Source: a virus
Strand: one strand, 5' to 3'
Virus record (IMG/VR): IMGVR_UViG_3300010885_057220
Span: 1-24,968 of that record
DNA: 24,968 bases
Shown one piece after another: positions 1 to 24,777 of this stretch (position 1 is the first letter of the stretch; each line of letters opens with the position of its first letter). A program made the translations under genes and the position numbers. The notes under the pieces are model-generated. The model ran no database searches. It was not told the DNA's origin and saw nothing but the letters and a program-made list of their open reading frames with translations.

Positions 1-315
1 GAAGGAATGGAAATGTTTCCTACTCTTGTTAAAACTCAGAGTGGTGGTAAGGGGCCGATTTATCTTGCTTCGGTTCTTGTGCAACTTAGTACGAAGAACG
101 AGAAAACTAGTGACAATCCTAATGAACAATCTGTGGCTATTGCCCATAATATTTCAGGTGTTACGCTAGGTGCAATGACTGTAAAGAACCGCTTTGTACC
201 ATCTTATCTTAAGACAGAGCTTTATCTTAATTTTAAAACCGGTCTAGATAAGCATGCCGGACTTTTTGAAATTGCTGAAGCGTTGGCGTTATTGAAAAAC
301 CTGGACGTACAGTAA
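1..315 (+). CDS. uvsX: UvsX/RecA-like recombinase, C-terminal part (5' end outside window)
   Basis: This is the 3' part of a strand-exchange recombinase; the reading frame is open from base 1, so the gene begins upstream. The segment with EMFPT, then SGGKG, the basic stretch VKNRFVPSY and the ending GLDKHAGLFEIAEA corresponds to the C-terminal half of the RecA/UvsX core. There is no ATP-binding site here, since that lies upstream. UvsX pairs single-stranded ends with duplex DNA for repair and recombination-dependent replication. The frame stops at 313-315 after residues that no longer resemble RecA. The overlapping -1 frame, from about 279 onward, continues the expected family sequence (VGVIEKPGRTVMYKGESLG). 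The gene is therefore interrupted by a -1 shift around 279-300. The helicase gene follows directly, as in T4 (uvsX-40-41). Confidence 0.75.
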   Translation, partial: EGMEMFPTLVKTQSGGKGPIYLASVLVQLSTKNEKTSDNPNEQSVAIAHNISGVTLGAMTVKNRFVPSYLKTELYLNFKTGLDKHAGLFEIAEALALLKNLDVQ

Positions 316-476
316 TGTATAAAGGAGAAAGTCTTGGTTATAGAAAAGATCTCGAAAAAGATCCTAAATTCTGGGAAAAGATTATGCCAGAATTAGAAAA
401 AGTCTTACAAGAGAAACTTTGCTATGGCACTAGTTCTACAGTAGATATTGAAGAAGAAGTCGATAATATCGAATAA
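315..476 (+). CDS. 53-aa ORF that reads as the displaced C-terminal tail of UvsX
   Basis: An ATG overlapping the previous stop (TAATG) opens a 53-codon frame whose own stop overlaps the helicase ATG in the same TAATG arrangement. The product starts MYKGESLGYRKDLEKD, continues with FWEKIMPELEKV, and ends in an acidic tail. This matches the end of RecA-type proteins, where IEKxGxxYxYKGExxG is followed by a helical segment and an acidic tail. Upstream of the ATG the same frame stays open back to 279 and reads VGVIEKPGRTV, exactly what should follow the UvsX frame. It is most likely the frameshifted UvsX C-terminus. It could instead be translated separately by reinitiation at TAATG. An independent gene at the T4 gene-40 position is less likely. 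Confidence 0.6.
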   Translation: MYKGESLGYRKDLEKDPKFWEKIMPELEKVLQEKLCYGTSSTVDIEEEVDNIE

Positions 477-2885: not shown

Positions 2886-3782
2886 ATGACATTTAGCAAA
2901 AATATATTCGCCGAAATTAAAGCCTCACTCTCGAACAAGAGTGATAATTCATATAAGGACATCATGAAGTTCGAGTCCGGTAAGACCTATCTCGTACGTC
3001 TTGTCCCTAACGTTAACGAACCAAAGAAGACCATCTACAATTACAAGCATCACTCTTGGAAGAGTCATTCTAACGGTCAGTTTATTACCTCACTCTGCCC
3101 AAGTACTCACGGAGAGTTATGCCCGATTGATTCTTATGTCATGAAGACATACAATACAGGTACCGAAGAAGAGAAGAAGAAGCTTGGAGAGGTTTCTCGT
3201 AAGGAGAATTGGATGGTAAATGCTTATGTTATTACCGATCCTACTAACCCTGAAAACGAAGGTAAGGTTAAGGTTATTCGCTACGGTAAGGAGCTTGCAA
3301 AGATTATTACTAGTGCAATTGATGGAGATGATTCTTCTGAATTTGGCGATAAGATCTTTGATGTAGCTAATGGTAGCACTCTTCGTATTAAGTGTGAAGC
3401 CCGTGCTGGTGCAGCAAATTCCAGAACGTTCGTTACATACGCTTCGTCTAAGTTCTTGTCACCATCTAAGCTTGATGGTTTTGACGATGCTAAGCTTCAA
3501 ACAGTCTATCAAGGTATTTTTGACCTTGAGAAGTTTAACAAGGCTAAGACCTCTACTGAACTACAACGTCTTCTTGATCAGCATTTCTTCTGTATTCAAG
3601 ACGTAACAAGTGAAGAGGAAGTAGATGAAGATACTGTACCTGAACCGGTCACAGCTAAGCCTACTAAGGCGGATATTGTCAATAGTGTTTTTGAAGGAGT
3701 TGCCGAAGCTAAGGCTCCAACCCCATCACCTGCTGTAGATGATACCGATGCAAAACTTAAAGAACTACTTGCTGGACTCTAA
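2886..3782 (+). CDS. 32: single-stranded DNA-binding protein, gp32-like
   Basis: 298 residues, against 301 for T4 gp32. It coats ssDNA at forks and recombination intermediates and organises gp59, gp41 and UvsX. The layout matches: a short basic N-terminus for cooperative binding, a core starting MKFESGKTYLVRLVPN (about 27-42), a zinc-site region with His 55/56, CPSTHGELCPID (about 71-82), and a C-terminal acidic Pro/Ala-rich tail ending DDTDAKLKELLAGL that in T4 recruits partners. The last zinc-ligand Cys of the usual CPxC is Asp (CPID), so the metal site may be altered or lost. Codon use is richer in AAG, GGT and C-ending codons than in the baseplate genes, consistent with high expression. 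Confidence 0.9.
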   Translation: MTFSKNIFAEIKASLSNKSDNSYKDIMKFESGKTYLVRLVPNVNEPKKTIYNYKHHSWKSHSNGQFITSLCPSTHGELCPIDSYVMKTYNTGTEEEKKKLGEVSRKENWMVNAYVITDPTNPENEGKVKVIRYGKELAKIITSAIDGDDSSEFGDKIFDVANGSTLRIKCEARAGAANSRTFVTYASSKFLSPSKLDGFDDAKLQTVYQGIFDLEKFNKAKTSTELQRLLDQHFFCIQDVTSEEEVDEDTVPEPVTAKPTKADIVNSVFEGVAEAKAPTPSPAVDDTDAKLKELLAGL

Positions 3783-3807: not shown

Positions 3808-4641
3808 ATGCCTAGAATCAAAACTAACGCCGATATCCCCGACATTCAGAATACTGTTGACGGGTTCCCTAAGAAGTATATCCCTAAGGTTGGTACCCGA
3901 GATGCAACGCTTCCCGTTAAGATCATTCGTAAGGATGGCACGGTGAACGAAGGCTCTGGTAAGTTCAGTATGTATACCGATCTCACTCCTGAGAATAAAG
4001 GTACAAATATGAGCCGTTATCGTATCCTTATTGAGGAGGTTGTAGCAAAGGATGGATACTTTGTTCATGAAGTTATTAAGGATCTTCTTCATGAGTGTAA
4101 GTCCAGACTTAAGTCTGATAACGCTTATGTAAAGATTAAGTTTGACTACTTCCTTAAGCGTCTAGCCCCTGTATCTAAGGTAGAGTCTCATATGGACTAT
4201 CGCGCTAATATGGAAGGCAGGCTTGTTGATGGTAAAGAGAGACTCTATCTTACCGTTCACGTTATGTACGCTTCTCTTTGCCCTTGCTCGAAAGAGATCA
4301 GTGATTACGGAGCTCATAATCAACGTTCAGTAGCTGACGTTACTGTTGAGCTTGATGAGTCAAAGGGCATTATGTGGATTGAAGAGATTATCGATATTGT
4401 TGAGAAGTGCTCTTCAGCCCCGATTATTAATGCTCTTAAGCGTGTAGACGAAGCTTATCAGACTGAGCTTATGTATGAGAATCCAGTCTTCGTTGAAGAT
4501 ATGGTTCGTAAGGTAGCTGTTGAGCTTGATAAGGAGCTTGATAACCGTATTAAGGATTACTCGGTAGTTGTTAATCACTACGAGTCCATTCACACCGCCG
4601 TTGCCGTTGCAGTTATTAACGCAGGCAGAGAATTAAAGTAA
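3808..4641 (+). CDS. folE2: GTP cyclohydrolase IB (FolE2/COG1469 family)
   Basis: 277 residues from the ATG at 3808. An in-frame ATG at 3739 lies inside gp32 and is not needed, and the family begins at MPRIKTNADIPDIQNT. The enzyme converts GTP to 7,8-dihydroneopterin triphosphate, the first step toward folate and toward 7-deazaguanines (queuosine, archaeosine and phage DNA base modifications). The diagnostic motif SLCPCSKEISDYGAHNQRS is present: Cys158 corresponds to the catalytic/metal Cys and His170 to the metal His 12 residues on. LKRVDE and YENPVFVEDMVRKVA follow. Two usually conserved spots differ: MSR is preceded by GTN rather than GTH, and SIH is followed by TAV rather than NHD/PHD. 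It sits between gp32 and the clamp, with codon use like gp32. Confidence 0.9.
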   Translation: MPRIKTNADIPDIQNTVDGFPKKYIPKVGTRDATLPVKIIRKDGTVNEGSGKFSMYTDLTPENKGTNMSRYRILIEEVVAKDGYFVHEVIKDLLHECKSRLKSDNAYVKIKFDYFLKRLAPVSKVESHMDYRANMEGRLVDGKERLYLTVHVMYASLCPCSKEISDYGAHNQRSVADVTVELDESKGIMWIEEIIDIVEKCSSAPIINALKRVDEAYQTELMYENPVFVEDMVRKVAVELDKELDNRIKDYSVVVNHYESIHTAVAVAVINAGRELK

Positions 4642-4642
4642 T

Positions 4643-5101
4643 ATGGCCGTATCCGAAGAGCAATTAGCAGCAGCCATTATGGCTAAGATTACAGGCAACA
4701 ATCTTCAAAGGATTGATGAAAGTTCTGTAACTCAGGGTATGACTGCTCCTGCTAATAGATTAGACCCAATGAGCTTTGTAAGACAGACAAGCCCTACAGG
4801 TCCCTCTCTGCAGCAAGTTCAAATGATGGAACAGCTTAATAAAGCAGCAGAGCAAATGTATCCGTTGCCATCAGACCCTACATCAGCCCCGGTACCTACA
4901 GTAATTGCTTCGATGCCTTCCCCTATTGGTGTAACACCTACAGCACCAGCACCTCAACAAATTGATTTATCTGTTCTTACAAGAGAAGATGTACAATCAA
5001 TTCGTTCTCAGTTGGAAAAGACTAACGCTACACTTACGAAAATGGCCGGTATGTTAGGCAAGGTGTTTGCAACCTTTACAGAAAAAAATAAAAACTTGTA
5101 A
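4643..5101 (+). CDS. hypothetical protein with Pro-rich linker, 152 aa
   Basis: I do not recognise this protein. The ATG begins 1 nt after the FolE2 stop (TAATATG). Visible architecture: an N-terminal helix (SEEQLAAAIMAKITG), a Gln/Met-rich middle (VQMMEQLNKAAEQM), a disordered Pro/Ala/Thr linker (about 75-107), and a C-terminal heptad-like helix (DVQSIRSQLEKTNATLTKMAGMLGKVFATF). This could be an adaptor or oligomerising protein. Its place between gp32/FolE2 and the sliding clamp suggests it belongs to the replication operon. The function is unknown. Confidence 0.6.
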   Translation: MAVSEEQLAAAIMAKITGNNLQRIDESSVTQGMTAPANRLDPMSFVRQTSPTGPSLQQVQMMEQLNKAAEQMYPLPSDPTSAPVPTVIASMPSPIGVTPTAPAPQQIDLSVLTREDVQSIRSQLEKTNATLTKMAGMLGKVFATFTEKNKNL

Positions 5102-6632: not shown

Positions 6633-8387
6633 ATGTCAGATGATGAAATAATTGAAAACCCTATAGACGATTCTCAATACTATAGAGGGGATAAAAATGT
6701 TCCAAAGGAGGATGCTCAGTTTGAGTGGACTCCTAAGATGGTTAAGGAGATTAAAAAGTGCAAAGAGGATATTATTCACTTTGCCGAAGAGCATTTTTAT
6801 ATTGTAAATTTAGATCGAGGCAAAGAAAAAATAGATCTTTATAAAGCACAAAAAAAAGCTCTTAAGAGTTTAGCTGATAATAGGTTTGTCTGTGTACTAG
6901 CCAGCCGTCAGTGCGGTAAAACAACAATTACTACTATCTATGCATTATGGAATACTTGCTTCTATGATGATCAGAGAGTTATTATTGTAGCTAACAAAGA
7001 AAATACTGCGATTAATATCTTTAAGCGTATTAGATTAGCTTACGAAATGTTACCTAACTATCTTAAACCCGGAGTTAAAGAATATGGTAAAACGGGTGTA
7101 ACATTTGCTAACGGTTCTAGTATTGGTATTAGTACTACAACATCAACAGCAGCCAGAGGTGATTCTGCTTCTATTCTTTGTATTGACGAGGCTGCATTCA
7201 TTGAGCCTCACTTCATGGAAGATTTTTGGAAATCAGTTATCCCTATTGTATCTTCCGGTAAAAAGACTAAAATCTTTATGGTTAGTACTCCTAATGGTAC
7301 GGGTAATAAATTCTATGAAGTTTATTCAGGTGCTGAAAAGGGTACTAACGGGTGGCATTACGAACGTATTGATTGGTGGGATGTACCAGGGAGAGGTGAG
7401 AAGTGGCGTAAGCAAATGGCTGCTGCTTTAGGATCAGATGAAGCGTTTCAACAAGAGTTTGGTAATACATTTTTAGATGCAGGTAACTCTGCAGTAGGGG
7501 CTTCTGTTATTGAAAGGTTTAAAGAGAAAAAGAAACCAGTTATTTGGGACTCAGAAGAAGGACATTATAAAGTATTTGAACGACCAGATGCTTCTAAGCT
7601 TTATGTAATAGGGGTTGACGTTGGAGAGGGTATAGGAAGAGCATCTTCTGTTGCCCAGGTATTAGATATAACAGATTTAACTGAAATAAAACAAGTAGCG
7701 GTATTTGGTACTAATATTATTGAACCTTATCATTACTCTAATAAACTCGTTGCATTAGCTAGTCAATGGGGTAACCCTCCTTTACTTGTAGAAAGAAATA
7801 ATTGTGGTGCTCAAATTATTGATAACCTCTTTCATAAGCATTATTACGAAAAGATAGTTAGTTGTTCAAAGCTTGCTAATACTGGTTCCTTTTCTAACAC
7901 CCGTCATTTAGGTATCCTAAGTCATAATAATTTAAGATTTGCAGGAGTAGCTAATATGCGCTACTGGCTTAACTTCTTACAAACCGTTCATATTAATGAT
8001 ATAGATACTATTAAAGAGCTTGAAACGTTTATTAGATACCCTAACGGTACATATAGAAAAAAGAATGATAACTTCTATGATGATAGAGTTATGGCTCTTG
8101 TTTGGACATTATTTGCATTAGAACCGGAAATATGTCAACAGTATTTTCAAATAGATGAATACGATGAACAAAATAAACCTTTAAAGATATCTAATTTAGG
8201 ATACGACGAAATTGATCCAAAACTTTTCACGTTAAGAGAGTTGAGTGTAGAAAATAATATAACAAATATAGGATCAGAAATAGTAGAAAGTTACACCCCT
8301 CTTATGACAGAAGAGGAGCTTAACAAAGCATATAGTAATTCTGATCATTGGGATCTATTAAATAATGGTTGGATACCATTAGACTAA
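6633..8387 (+). CDS. 17: large terminase subunit, gp17-like
   Basis: 584 residues, comparable to T4 gp17 (610). It is the packaging motor ATPase and headful nuclease. N-terminal ATPase: Walker A SRQCGKTT (about 91-98), Walker B ILCIDEAA (about 181-188) with catalytic Glu, and coupling motif STPNGTG (about 218-224). C-terminal RNase-H-like nuclease: VIGVDVGEG (Asp329), LLVERNNCG (Glu387) and NFYDDRVMAL (Asp483/484), which supply the acidic triad. The ATG directly follows an inverted repeat with a late box. The next gene starts one base after the stop. Unlike T4, the probable small subunit is not next door but about 13.6 kb downstream. Confidence 0.95.
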   Translation: MSDDEIIENPIDDSQYYRGDKNVPKEDAQFEWTPKMVKEIKKCKEDIIHFAEEHFYIVNLDRGKEKIDLYKAQKKALKSLADNRFVCVLASRQCGKTTITTIYALWNTCFYDDQRVIIVANKENTAINIFKRIRLAYEMLPNYLKPGVKEYGKTGVTFANGSSIGISTTTSTAARGDSASILCIDEAAFIEPHFMEDFWKSVIPIVSSGKKTKIFMVSTPNGTGNKFYEVYSGAEKGTNGWHYERIDWWDVPGRGEKWRKQMAAALGSDEAFQQEFGNTFLDAGNSAVGASVIERFKEKKKPVIWDSEEGHYKVFERPDASKLYVIGVDVGEGIGRASSVAQVLDITDLTEIKQVAVFGTNIIEPYHYSNKLVALASQWGNPPLLVERNNCGAQIIDNLFHKHYYEKIVSCSKLANTGSFSNTRHLGILSHNNLRFAGVANMRYWLNFLQTVHINDIDTIKELETFIRYPNGTYRKKNDNFYDDRVMALVWTLFALEPEICQQYFQIDEYDEQNKPLKISNLGYDEIDPKLFTLRELSVENNITNIGSEIVESYTPLMTEEELNKAYSNSDHWDLLNNGWIPLD

Positions 8388-20172: not shown

Positions 20173-20409
20173 ATGTTAAAATGTTTTACAACAATTGATT
20201 TAGTAGAAGGTTCATTTGTCGGTACAATTTATAATTCAAATACTAATACTGTTATATACAAGACAATACCTTACGAGAACCAATCTCAAGCTTTACAAGA
20301 TATAAACATATATCTTAAGACGTTAAAATCTCCAGACTCTGCACCTGTACCGATTTCTAATACTTTTACTCAAGTTACTCAAGAAGTAAGAAAGTGTTGC
20401 GGTCGTTAA
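20173..20409 (+). CDS. small hypothetical protein, 78 aa
   Basis: I do not recognise it. It has a short beta-like N-terminus (CFTTIDLVEGSFVGTIYNSNTN), a helix (YENQSQALQDINIYLKTLK) and ends in KCCGR. A perfect late promoter box precedes it, so it is likely a real late gene. Its stop overlaps by 4 nt the stop of the convergent gp44 gene on the other strand. The double cysteine near the C-terminus is the only unusual feature. Confidence 0.55.
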   Translation: MLKCFTTIDLVEGSFVGTIYNSNTNTVIYKTIPYENQSQALQDINIYLKTLKSPDSAPVPISNTFTQVTQEVRKCCGR

Positions 20410-21317
20410 AAAAGTTTCTGTAAACAGATACAGCAACTAAACCAGTTAATCTCTTTATCGATAACAATACTGTCTTTGTACATATACTCAGATATTAGAA
20501 TAAGACGTTCACTATCATTCTCTGTATTAAAGATAACTTCAAACATCTCTTTTAAGAGTTGTAAATAATCTCCAGAAAACTCTTGTTCCCTTTCTATAAC
20601 GTATTTACGTATAGTAGTAAGATCAGTCTTATCTTTAATTTTATGTACCACATTTTCTGCTAACCCTTTAACTTGATTATCTTTAATAACAAGGGTACCT
20701 GTATAAGAGAACTTCTGAATATCATTTAGAATACGTCGAAGATCAGGGTAACCATTCCTTACTAGTTCTACTAATCGACTCTTCTCAGTATCAGGTACAT
20801 TAATACTCTGCTGTTTAAGTACATAAACAACCCTATTTAAAACGCCATCTAAAGGAGGAGTTAAATTAAAAATCTGACATCTAGATTGTAAAGCAGGTAT
20901 TACCTTAAAAATATAATTACAGGTAAAGATAAAACGGGTATTAGATGAATACTCCTCAATAACGTTACGAAGAGCTTTCTGGGAATCTAACGATAAAGCA
21001 TCACACTCATCAAATAATACAACCTTTATCTTACCATCTAAAGACTTTGTAGATGAGAAACCAATAACTTTACTTCTAATAGTATCAATACCGTTTTCAT
21101 CTGATGCATTAATATAAAGATATTGACAATCTAGTACATCGCTTACAATAATCTTAGCAAGAGAGGTCTTACCAGTACCAGGGCTTCCGGCAAAGAGTAA
21201 ATTAGGAATTTCTTCTTTACCTTTTAAAGATAAAAAGTAATTCTTCTCTTCTGGGGTTAAAACAATATCATCTAAAGTCTTAGGACGATAACGCTCAACT
21301 AATAAATCTTGGAACAT
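20406..21317 (-). CDS. 44: sliding-clamp loader ATPase subunit, gp44-like
   Basis: 303 residues (T4 gp44 has 319). An AAA+ subunit that opens and loads the gp45 clamp. N-terminal VERYRPKTLDDIV, Walker A GSPGTGKT (about 44-51), Walker B VLFDECDAL (about 100-108), sensor 1 FTCN (131-134) and the SRC arginine-finger motif (145-147) are all present; a C-terminal helical collar follows. It lies on the opposite strand, with dut and a 54-aa ORF upstream of it. A TTGGCT-17-TATAAT promoter sits at the end of dut, so it can also be transcribed alone. The small loader subunit gp62 is not in view. Confidence 0.9.
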   Translation of the reverse strand: MFQDLLVERYRPKTLDDIVLTPEEKNYFLSLKGKEEIPNLLFAGSPGTGKTSLAKIIVSDVLDCQYLYINASDENGIDTIRSKVIGFSSTKSLDGKIKVVLFDECDALSLDSQKALRNVIEEYSSNTRFIFTCNYIFKVIPALQSRCQIFNLTPPLDGVLNRVVYVLKQQSINVPDTEKSRLVELVRNGYPDLRRILNDIQKFSYTGTLVIKDNQVKGLAENVVHKIKDKTDLTTIRKYVIEREQEFSGDYLQLLKEMFEVIFNTENDSERLILISEYMYKDSIVIDKEINWFSCCICLQKLF

Positions 21318-21323
21318 GTAGCT

Positions 21324-21352
21324 ATTATACGCTTATTTTCCAGAAGAGCCAA
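21324..21352 (-). promoter_or_regulatory. candidate sigma70-type promoter for gp44
   Basis: On the minus strand TTGGCT (21352-21347), a 17-nt spacer and TATAAT (21329-21324), then 6 nt to the gp44 ATG. The -35 lies in the 3' end of dut. The geometry again predicts a transcript starting at or next to the ATG. Confidence 0.4.
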
Positions 21353-21788
21353 ATCCTTTTTCACCTCTTTGAGCAGGAATAATTTCTTCAATAAAAGAAA
21401 CTTTTGTTTCCCATACTCGTTCAATCTTAATCTGAGCAGTACGTTCATCCTTCTTTACGGTATAATCGTTGTCAGTAAAATTATACATCTTAACCCCTAA
21501 ATCCCCTCGATAACCATTATCGATTTCGCCTAAATGAGGTTGAAGCCCGGCCTTAAAACCAAGACCTGAACGAGGTCGAATAACAAATCCGTAGCCAGGT
21601 GAAATATAACCACAAGTTAATCCTACAGGAACAACAGCACTACCTCTAGCAGGTATAGTAGTATCTTCTACCGAGTAGAGATCAAAGCAGTTATCTTCAT
21701 CGTATGCCTTTGTAGGAAGTTTAGCATCTAAATGAGTTTTAACAAACTTAACCTCAACAGGACATTGAGTATAGCTAACGTTATTCAT
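21333..21788 (-). CDS. dut: dUTP diphosphatase (trimeric dUTPase)
   Basis: 151 residues, the usual trimeric dUTPase size. It hydrolyses dUTP to dUMP and PPi, keeping uracil out of DNA and supplying dTMP synthesis. The five motifs appear in order: I DNCFDLYS (about 32-39), II RPRSGLG (71-77), III GEIDNGYRGDLGV (87-99, catalytic Asp90 with Tyr93), IV RTAQIKIERV (116-125), V RGEKGFGSSG (141-150, the mobile arm). Motif III reads IDNGYRG, versus the common IDSDYRG. It overlaps the 54-aa ORF by 8 nt upstream and is followed by gp44 after 15 nt. Confidence 0.95.
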   Translation of the reverse strand: MNNVSYTQCPVEVKFVKTHLDAKLPTKAYDEDNCFDLYSVEDTTIPARGSAVVPVGLTCGYISPGYGFVIRPRSGLGFKAGLQPHLGEIDNGYRGDLGVKMYNFTDNDYTVKKDERTAQIKIERVWETKVSFIEEIIPAQRGEKGFGSSGK

Positions 21789-23122: not shown

Positions 23123-23140
23123 GCTCTTTAAGCTTCACAA
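23117..23140. terminator. hairpin between convergent collar and nrdA genes, possible bidirectional terminator
   Basis: TTGTAAGCT, loop CTTTA, AGCTT, a bulged C and ACAA form a 9-bp stem with one bulge. It spans both stop codons. Only a weak T-rich run (CTTTTACATT) follows on the + strand, so termination is uncertain. Confidence 0.35.
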
Positions 23141-24777
23141 CTTTTACATTCCAAGATACTTCTAGCGAGTTCTTGACTTGGATTAGCTGAACGCTGATAG
23201 TATAGGGATTTAATACCCGACTCCCAGGCAAAGATCATAAGCTCATTTACATCTTTTGGTCTTGTATTAGGAGGAATCATAAGGTTTAAAGACTGACCTT
23301 GATCGATGTATTTTTGACGTGCTGCAGCCTGAATAATAATCTCCTTCTGTGAGATCTCACCAAATGTCTTAAAGACATCTTTTTCATCTTGAGTTAAGAA
23401 ACTTAAATGTTGAACCGAGCCACCCTTAACAAGAATAGACTTCCAGGTATCGTCATCATGCTTACCCTTCTCCTTGAGAAGAGCCTTAAGATAAGGATTC
23501 TTAAACGTAAACTTACCCTTTGCTAAATCTTTAACGAAGTAATTACTATTAAGTGGTTCAATAGATGGTGATACCTGACCGAGAATAAACGAACTTGATG
23601 TTGTAGGAGCTACAGCAAGTGTTGTCGTATTACGGCGATTGTAACCTTTAAGTAAAGGTGCTTCCCCATACTCTTTAGCTAAGTCTTCAGATGCCTTATC
23701 TGCCTTCTCTCTAATAAGCTTCCAAATCTGGTTATTGAGCATCTTAGCGCCCATTGATTCAAACCCAATCATCTTCTGCTGAAGAAGAGAATGCCATCCA
23801 AGAACTCCAACACCTAAAGCCCGTTGATTAATAGCAAAGTTTCTAGGATGATCCATAAACTTCATTCCTTCAGTCTTATTAATAAACTCTGTCATTACTG
23901 AATCAAGGAAGTAAACTAATGTTTCAACTGCATCAGTATCCTTCCAATCATCCCAACGTTCAAGATTTAAAGAAGATAAATCACAGACAAACGATTCATC
24001 AATACCATTTGAAAGCATGATCTCTGAACAAAGATTGGAATGACTAATCTTAAGACCTTTATCCTTATAAACTTGTGGAGCCTGCTTATTAACGTTATCG
24101 GTAAAGAATATGTATGGGTACCCGGACTCAAAGCGTTTCTTAATGACTAGGCCCCAGAGACTACGCTTCTCTTTATCGCCATCAAGCATTGACTTCATCC
24201 ATTTATCAGATACACATACACCAATTGAGAGATCCTGAATAGAATCTCCTTCTGATCTAATCTTAAGAAACTCTTCAATGTCGGCATGATCAATAGGTAG
24301 GTAAGCAGCAAACGATCCACGACGTACATTACCTTGGGAAATATAACTAGTAAGAGAATCAAAAACAGAAAGCTGATGATGAACCCCTGTTGCTTCACCC
24401 CCTGATGAGATAGGTGTACCTCTAGGACGGATAGCACCAAAATAACCGGATGTACCTCCACCTACCTTTGACATAACGCCAACCTCAGCAATCTTATAGA
24501 GGATATCATCCATGTCATCATTAACATAAGATCCGAAACATGAAATAGGCAATCCACGCTTACGACCGAAGTTAGACCAAATAGGAGAGCTTAGAGAGTA
24601 ATAACCTTTATGTACATAAGATTCAAATCTATCTGCAAAACCAGGTAGGTTAAGATAGTGTTCTGCTTTTTCAGCAATATCTCTTATACGTTGTTCGGCA
24701 GTTTCTCCTTCTAAAAGGTAACCACGTTCTAGAAATTTTCTAGAATCTTTATTAAGCCAATAGATATGTTCTGTCAT
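23128..24777 (-). CDS. nrdA: ribonucleotide reductase large (alpha) subunit, class I, without ATP-cone
   Basis: 549 residues, much shorter than T4 or E. coli NrdA (about 755-760). It makes dNDPs from NDPs. Catalytic residues are all visible: Cys80 in PISCFGS and Cys265 in FVCDLSSLNL (redox pair), Asn248/Cys250/Glu252 in NLCSEI (radical Cys), Tyr526/Tyr527 in SLYYQR (radical transfer), and a C-terminal CKSC (544/547) for reduction by thioredoxin/glutaredoxin. GGGTSGYFG and QGNVRRGSFAAYLPIDH are family hallmarks. The first catalytic Cys lies about 145 residues earlier than in E. coli, so the ATP-cone activity domain is missing. Starts 6 nt after nrdB. Confidence 0.95.
   Translation of the reverse strand: MTEHIYWLNKDSRKFLERGYLLEGETAEQRIRDIAEKAEHYLNLPGFADRFESYVHKGYYSLSSPIWSNFGRKRGLPISCFGSYVNDDMDDILYKIAEVGVMSKVGGGTSGYFGAIRPRGTPISSGGEATGVHHQLSVFDSLTSYISQGNVRRGSFAAYLPIDHADIEEFLKIRSEGDSIQDLSIGVCVSDKWMKSMLDGDKEKRSLWGLVIKKRFESGYPYIFFTDNVNKQAPQVYKDKGLKISHSNLCSEIMLSNGIDESFVCDLSSLNLERWDDWKDTDAVETLVYFLDSVMTEFINKTEGMKFMDHPRNFAINQRALGVGVLGWHSLLQQKMIGFESMGAKMLNNQIWKLIREKADKASEDLAKEYGEAPLLKGYNRRNTTTLAVAPTTSSSFILGQVSPSIEPLNSNYFVKDLAKGKFTFKNPYLKALLKEKGKHDDDTWKSILVKGGSVQHLSFLTQDEKDVFKTFGEISQKEIIIQAAARQKYIDQGQSLNLMIPPNTRPKDVNELMIFAWESGIKSLYYQRSANPSQELARSILECKSCEA

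What the first reader, a model, noticed from the sequence alone, without database searches (positions are those of the whole stretch)
3808..4641. FolE2-type GTP cyclohydrolase inside the replication operon
FolE2 starts the pterin route to folate and 7-deazaguanine bases. Phages with preQ0/archaeosine-type DNA modification carry early genes of this pathway. Placement between gp32 and the clamp, with gp32-like codon use, suggests a role during DNA synthesis, for example supplying a modified guanine that protects the genome.
Basis: partly seen in the sequence, partly recalled or inferred. Interest (0 to 1): 0.6.

Follow-up and report, generated by a model that had tools for sequence, protein, structure and literature searches.

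The report
FolE2 feeding phage DNA-guanine modification
An uncultured T4-like virus of bacteria carries, inside its DNA-replication genes, the enzyme that starts the synthesis of altered guanine bases; its near relatives carry all the other enzymes needed to make such a base and swap it into DNA, which probably shields the viral genome from the host's DNA-cutting defences.

Summary
Window 3808-4641 encodes a full-length FolE2 (GTP cyclohydrolase IB), 25 bp behind gp32, under strong purifying selection. The window (24,968 bp) is a fragment and holds no other pterin or 7-deazaguanine gene, so I tested the interpretation in relatives. A contig of the same virus (99.96% identical) carries QueF just upstream. 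Relatives with FolE2 at the same place carry QueD, QueE, QueC and a TGT-fold transglycosylase: all 20 FolE2 loci with enough upstream sequence have it. In the window's clade the order is transglycosylase, formyltransferase, nucleotide kinase, QueF, UvsX, DnaB, gp32, FolE2. In an unrelated phage contig (L175), FolE2 lies in one cluster with QueD, DpdA, formyltransferase, kinase, QueF, QueC and QueE. FolE and FolE2 never co-occur (55 FolE2, 17 FolE, 0 both). DHFR, HPPK and FolE were not found in 18 relatives. FolE2 therefore most likely starts a phage-encoded route to a 7-deazaguanine placed in the phage's own DNA, in this clade probably preQ1 or formyl-preQ1. Chemistry is unproven. This is a new variant of a known kind: FolE2 instead of FolE, inside a T4-like replication operon. 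Why a deoxynucleotide-type kinase accompanies the transglycosylase in 60 of 61 loci is open.

The parts
3808..4641 (+). FolE2, GTP cyclohydrolase IB (GTP to 7,8-dihydroneopterin triphosphate)
   Evidence: PF02649 E 4.4e-70; NF010200 equivalog above cut-off; LCPCSK and ESIH motifs kept
1..474 (+). 3' part of uvsX (RecA-like recombinase); the reading frame is broken near 284 by a base missing in this assembly. In relatives QueF, kinase, formyltransferase and DpdA lie just upstream of uvsX
   Evidence: PHROG UvsX-like; 93% to G001; missing C against L002
476..1825 (+). DnaB-like replicative helicase
   Evidence: PHROG_19 E 1.3e-81
2886..3782 (+). gp32-type ssDNA-binding protein, directly upstream of folE2
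   Evidence: PHROG_224 E 5.7e-40; codon use nearest to folE2
4643..5101 (+). 152-aa protein of unknown function, directly downstream of folE2 and conserved in place
   Evidence: orthologues in G001, G004 and G009; no PHROG
   Evidence: no PHROG; conserved order
6633..8387 (+). terminase large subunit (gp17-like)
   Evidence: tblastn to annotated terminases in 2507 phage records

Best explanation
FolE2 is the entry enzyme of a phage-encoded pathway that replaces guanine in the phage's DNA with a 7-deazaguanine. Proposed steps: FolE2 makes dihydroneopterin triphosphate from GTP; QueD and QueE make CDG; QueC makes preQ0; QueF reduces preQ0 to preQ1; a TGT-fold DpdA-type transglycosylase exchanges guanine for the 7-deazaguanine; and, in the window's clade, a 10-formyl-THF-dependent formyltransferase (DpdN-like) formylates the preQ1 amine. 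Shown here: the genes, their families, motifs and fold, their linkage, and that FolE2 takes the place of FolE in the same kind of cluster. Inferred: that the window's own genome holds the whole set (only FolE2 and QueF are shown for that virus), the chemistry, the order of the exchange and formylation steps, protection from restriction, and co-expression with gp32, which would make the precursor available while DNA is copied.
For: FolE2 identity. Same virus has QueF upstream. QueD in 16/18 records, QueC in 10/18, QueE in 6/6 genomes; the 218-kb relative G004 has every step. DpdA candidate: model pLDDT 90.5, the 19 best PDB matches all TGT, E 1.7e-7, probability 1.00; 46% identical to a protein annotated DpdA in Flavobacterium phage immuto and 44% to one of Campylobacter phage CP220; invariant D52, D83, D225 in 101 sequences. 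DpdA in 20/20 FolE2 loci with at least 8.6 kb upstream. L175: QueD-DpdA-formyltransferase-kinase-QueF-QueC-QueE-PRTase-FolE2 in one run. FolE and FolE2 exclusive: 55, 17, 0 both. QueF C200/D207 and ESKSxKLY invariant; formyltransferase N94/H96/D135 invariant and found only with QueF (32 loci, 0 without). No FolE, DHFR or HPPK.
Against: No chemistry. In the window's own virus only FolE2 and part of QueF are seen; the rest comes from relatives at about 70-82% DNA identity. The DpdA candidate has no Pfam hit and hhalign does not link it to phage 9g DpdA or nt-1 DpdA2 by sequence. Most contigs are fragments, so absences are weak. NCBIfam scores for QueF, QueD and QueE are below the equivalog cut-offs.
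Confidence: 0.87

Rival explanations
1. FolE2 mainly boosts folate, for thymidylate synthesis (ThyX in some relatives) or for the 10-formyl-THF used by the formyltransferase.
For: Dihydroneopterin triphosphate is shared by both pathways (established knowledge). ThyX sits beside DpdA in the second clade, and a formyltransferase family protein lies in the window's clade.
Against: No DHFR or HPPK in 18 records. FolE2 co-occurs with DpdA in 20/20 loci and is inside the que cluster in L175. It replaces FolE there.
Confidence: 0.07
2. The pathway supplies preQ0/preQ1 to host tRNA (queuosine) and not to DNA.
For: Proposed in PMC6884629 for phages with preQ0 genes but no DpdA. QueF is also the tRNA-pathway enzyme.
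Against: A TGT-fold protein of the phage DpdA type, related to one in Campylobacter phages whose DNA is reported highly modified (PMC6884629 citing Crippen 2019), is always present. A formyl step is not part of queuosine synthesis (general knowledge).
Confidence: 0.04
3. A variant of the best explanation, differing only in the insertion step: modified guanine is built at the nucleotide level. The DpdA-like enzyme acts on a (deoxy)guanine nucleotide, the adjacent kinase raises it to the triphosphate, and the phage polymerase inserts it.
For: Kinase directly downstream in 60 of 61 DpdA loci. Its model matches NadR, dTMP kinase and deoxyadenosine kinase. A DNA polymerase-like gene lies just upstream of the cassette in 39 loci. 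A modified-dGTP route was suggested for Campylobacter phages.
Against: TGT enzymes act on polynucleotides. The kinase could instead serve salvage of the displaced guanine, together with the phosphoribosyltransferase found in all four large relatives. From memory, later work (Cui et al. 2023, not readable here) argues for post-replication exchange in all such phages.
Confidence: 0.12

Closest known systems
FolE2 / GTP cyclohydrolase IB (PF02649, NF010200)
   Same: Full-length match above curated cut-offs, same motifs, 40-44% identical to the nearest bacterial proteins found
   Different: Phage-borne clade separate from the bacterial rows sampled; the bacterial ESIHNHSA motif reads ESIHTAVA, so the second His is lost
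Phage 9g / nt-1 / VH7D 7-deazaguanine DNA modification (Hutinet et al. 2019, PMC6884629, for 9g and nt-1)
   Same: GTP cyclohydrolase, QueD, QueE, QueC, a TGT-fold enzyme and, as in VH7D, QueF; nt-1 and VH7D are also T4-like
   Different: FolE2 instead of FolE; folE2 sits behind gp32; the transglycosylase is not linked by sequence to 9g DpdA or nt-1 DpdA2
Flavobacterium phage vB_FspM_immuto_2-6A cluster (NC_055915)
   Same: Same order DpdA, formyltransferase, kinase, QueF, with QueD, QueE and a phosphoribosyltransferase nearby
   Different: Uses FolE next to dpdA; DNA polymerase family A follows the cluster; no FolE2 hit
Campylobacter phage CP220 group (DNA reported highly modified by a 7-deazaguanine)
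   Same: Related DpdA-like protein followed by a P-loop kinase; QueD and QueE encoded
   Different: No formyltransferase or QueF annotated in the parts read; no FolE2 hit in this group
DpdA3 / DpdN / fdPreQ1 (Cui et al. 2023, from memory; paper not held)
   Same: I recall DpdA3 as the subfamily allowing full G replacement and DpdN as a dPreQ1 formyltransferase, matching this cassette
   Different: Could not be checked here; FolE2 is not part of that description as I recall it

Membership tests
FolE2 (GTP cyclohydrolase IB) | Full-length PF02649 / FolE2 equivalog match above curated cut-off | tested here: met
   236.6 bits against 25; 228.1 against 215
FolE2 (GTP cyclohydrolase IB) | Conserved Cys, Glu and His motifs of the active-site region (LCPCSK, YENP, ESIH) | tested here: met
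   Aligned with 2r5r, 8g6c and bacterial rows; their catalytic role is from memory
FolE2 (GTP cyclohydrolase IB) | Converts GTP to dihydroneopterin triphosphate | not testable with these tools
   Needs an assay
MptA (archaeal GTP cyclohydrolase) | TIGR00294 above cut-off | tested here: not met
   109.6 against 220
Phage 7-deazaguanine DNA modification system | GTP cyclohydrolase, QueD, QueE and QueC encoded together | tested here: met
   Met in relatives (G004, G009, G011, G014; L175); in the window's own virus only FolE2 and QueF are visible
Phage 7-deazaguanine DNA modification system | Modified base in virion DNA | not testable with these tools
   Uncultured viruses
DpdA (DNA guanine transglycosylase) | TGT fold | tested here: met
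   pLDDT 90.5; top 19 PDB matches TGT
DpdA (DNA guanine transglycosylase) | Sequence kinship to 9g DpdA or nt-1 DpdA2 | tested here: not met
   hhalign E 0.26 and 0.018, probability under 3%; kin only to immuto, named DpdA by its annotators, and CP220. An nt-1 protein appears among viral fold matches, E 6e-4. I therefore call it DpdA-type by fold and context only
QueF (preQ0 reductase) | QueF_N and QueF domains above cut-off, with catalytic Cys/Asp and ESKSxK motif | tested here: met
   82.5/25.6 and 41.1/27.3 bits; motifs invariant; TIGR03138 174.8, below its equivalog cut-off of 293
DpdN-like preQ1 formyltransferase | Formyl_trans_N domain with the N-H-D catalytic triad | tested here: met
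   39.6 against 26.1 bits; N94, H96, D135 invariant
DpdN-like preQ1 formyltransferase | Formylates preQ1 or dPreQ1 | not testable with these tools
   Only co-occurrence with QueF shown: 32 with, 0 without
Phage folate-synthesis set | Further folate enzymes (DHFR, HPPK) | tested here: not met
   0 of 18 records for each

The most novel reading that the evidence does not exclude
In this widespread T4-like lineage guanine is largely or wholly replaced by a formylated preQ1. The replacement involves a deoxynucleotide-kinase step tied to the transglycosylase: either the modified guanine is made at the nucleotide level and inserted by the polymerase, or the displaced guanine is recycled by a dedicated phosphoribosyltransferase and kinase. 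FolE2 feeds the route from within the replication operon.
Probability: 0.2. Interest if true: 0.75.

Novelty: new variant of a known kind. Interest (0 to 1): 0.52.

Why it matters
It ties a large uncultured lineage of T4-like phages to guanine modification of the genome, a defence against restriction enzymes. It shows that phages have taken up FolE2, in at least two separate protein lineages, in place of FolE; annotation screens that look only for FolE would miss these. FolE2 is known as the enzyme that does not depend on zinc (general knowledge), so the swap may suit zinc-poor waters, which is untested. The near-constant pairing of transglycosylase and kinase makes the open question of how guanine is replaced on a large scale directly testable.

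Tried and rejected
Annotated phages with FolE2: only three records, one unverified 6.7-kb faecal scaffold and two Staphylococcus records without annotation, probably host sequence; not used. hhalign of the DpdA candidate against 9g DpdA and nt-1 DpdA2 found no link; structure settled the fold instead. Pfam, PADLOC and PDB sequence search gave nothing useful for that protein. A T4 late-promoter motif (TATAAATA) near folE2: absent, and not enriched in the window. Extending the window's virus further left by an exact 43-mer found only the same contig. A PHROGs call failed on coordinates and was repeated; an alignment failed on in-frame stops in L044. Papers on FolE2 mechanism and on DpdA3/DpdN are not held; a literature search for FolE2 in phages returned nothing relevant.

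Full report
Observation. The ORF at 3808-4641 encodes 277 residues that match PF02649 end to end and the FolE2 equivalog model above its cut-off; the MptA model is far below its own. Solved FolE2 structures align with the SLCPCSK, GAHNQRS, NP.FVED and ESIH motifs kept. The gene begins 25 bp behind a gp32-type ssDNA-binding gene, its codon use is nearest to that gene, and its dN/dS against relatives is 0.017-0.045, lower than its neighbours wherever it could be computed.

Scope of the window. The window is the whole viral record, 24,968 bp, and it starts inside uvsX. Only folE2 in it concerns this pathway, so the interpretation had to be tested on other contigs. L002 is the same virus, 99.96% identical over 11,965 bp. 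It reaches 1.8 kb further left and shows the last 242 residues of QueF, with the catalytic Cys/Asp and ESKSxKLY motif.

Relatives. A scan gave 49 FolE2 loci. In the window's clade every contig that reaches far enough carries DpdA-like, formyltransferase, kinase, QueF, (small gene), UvsX, DnaB, SSB, FolE2, putative clamp, TerL in that order. A second clade has DpdA-like, ThyX, UvsX, QueD, DnaB, SSB, FolE2. All 20 FolE2 loci with at least 8.6 kb upstream have the DpdA-like gene. Among 18 longer records, QueD is in 16 and QueC in 10. QueF and the formyltransferase occur in the same five records. QueE was found in all six genomes read through. The 218-kb record G004 has every step, including a QueC above the TIGR00364 cut-off.

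The transglycosylase. The DpdA-like protein has no Pfam or PADLOC match. Its predicted structure (pLDDT 90.5) matches tRNA-guanine transglycosylases as the 19 best PDB hits (E 1.7e-7, probability 1.00). Its nearest isolates are Flavobacterium phage immuto, whose annotators call it DpdA, and Campylobacter phages of the CP220 group. PMC6884629 placed Campylobacter phages among those without a recognised DpdA and cited a report that their DNA is highly modified. From memory, Cui et al. 2023 later named such proteins DpdA3 and a dPreQ1 formyltransferase DpdN; that paper is not held, so this is a lead. Residues D52, D83 and D225 are invariant in 101 sequences and fit the TGT motifs DSGGFQ, the second Asp and FDC..PTR; that mapping is inference. 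By sequence the protein could not be linked to 9g DpdA or nt-1 DpdA2, so it is called DpdA-type by fold and context.

The cassette is widespread. A scan with the DpdA alignment matched 562 stretches; the 80 best were kept. Of 61 with enough downstream sequence, 60 have the kinase, 57 QueF and 39 the formyltransferase; with at least 4 kb downstream, the formyltransferase is never without QueF (32 with, 0 without). This fits a formylation of the preQ1 amine. The formyltransferase triad N-H-D is invariant. Many of these contigs carry FolE beside DpdA. Over 129 loci, 55 have FolE2, 17 FolE, none both. In L175, FolE2 (274 bits against a cut-off of 215) lies in one run with QueD, DpdA-like, formyltransferase, kinase, QueF, QueC, QueE and a phosphoribosyltransferase. 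This FolE2 is only 33% identical to the window's and branches apart, so FolE2 seems to have been recruited more than once; the bacterial sampling was narrow. This is the strongest evidence for FolE2's role: it replaces FolE as the first enzyme of a 7-deazaguanine cluster.

Alternatives. DHFR, HPPK and FolE were not found in 18 records, which weighs against folate supply, though many are fragments. A tRNA role is disfavoured by the DpdA-type protein and the formyltransferase. The kinase, whose model resembles NadR, dTMP kinase and deoxyadenosine kinase, is unexplained: it may act on a modified nucleotide, or on salvage of displaced guanine together with the phosphoribosyltransferase seen in all four large relatives.

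Conclusion. FolE2 very probably feeds a phage 7-deazaguanine DNA modification pathway. The kind of system is known; the use of FolE2, its place behind gp32 and the scale of the uncultured lineage are the new parts. The end product (preQ1 or formyl-preQ1), the extent of replacement and protection from restriction remain to be measured.

Noticed in passing
window 284, 2406, 2675: The window lacks single bases that are present in L002 (same virus). They truncate uvsX and split a 222-aa gene into ORFs 2170-2424 and 2436-2696; most likely assembly errors, not biology.
   Followed up: yes
L175:9776-10297; L012:3659-4213; 60 of 61 DpdA loci: An AAA_28 P-loop kinase follows the DpdA-like gene almost always; its model matches NadR, dTMP kinase and deoxyadenosine kinase. 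Role unknown.
   Followed up: partly
L068:10259-12284 (G004) and the same genes together in G009, G011, G014: QueC is neighboured by a class II glutamine amidotransferase and a Glyco_tranf_2_5 protein, conserved in four large relatives. The separate amidotransferase recalls the fused Gat-QueC of phage 9g; the glycosyltransferase-like protein is unexplained.
   Followed up: partly
L044:10001-10942 (and L045): FolE2 of this divergent phage has two in-frame TGA codons, the first at a Trp position conserved in other FolE2; reading TGA as Trp opens the gene and raises long-ORF coverage of G016 from 0.46 to 0.63, which suggests a TGA=Trp code. ARAGORN also lists a tmRNA and a tRNA with anticodon CTA.
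   Followed up: partly
G004, G006, G011: Two QueD/PTPS-family genes per phage, one near QueE or in the replication operon and one elsewhere.
   Followed up: no
L175:12769-13302; G011 132831-133223: A phosphoribosyltransferase lies within or beside the que genes; it could recycle guanine released by the transglycosylase.
   Followed up: partly
window 23128-24777, 21333-21788, 20406-21317: Ribonucleotide reductase large subunit, dUTPase and clamp loader lie on the minus strand at the right end.
   Followed up: no
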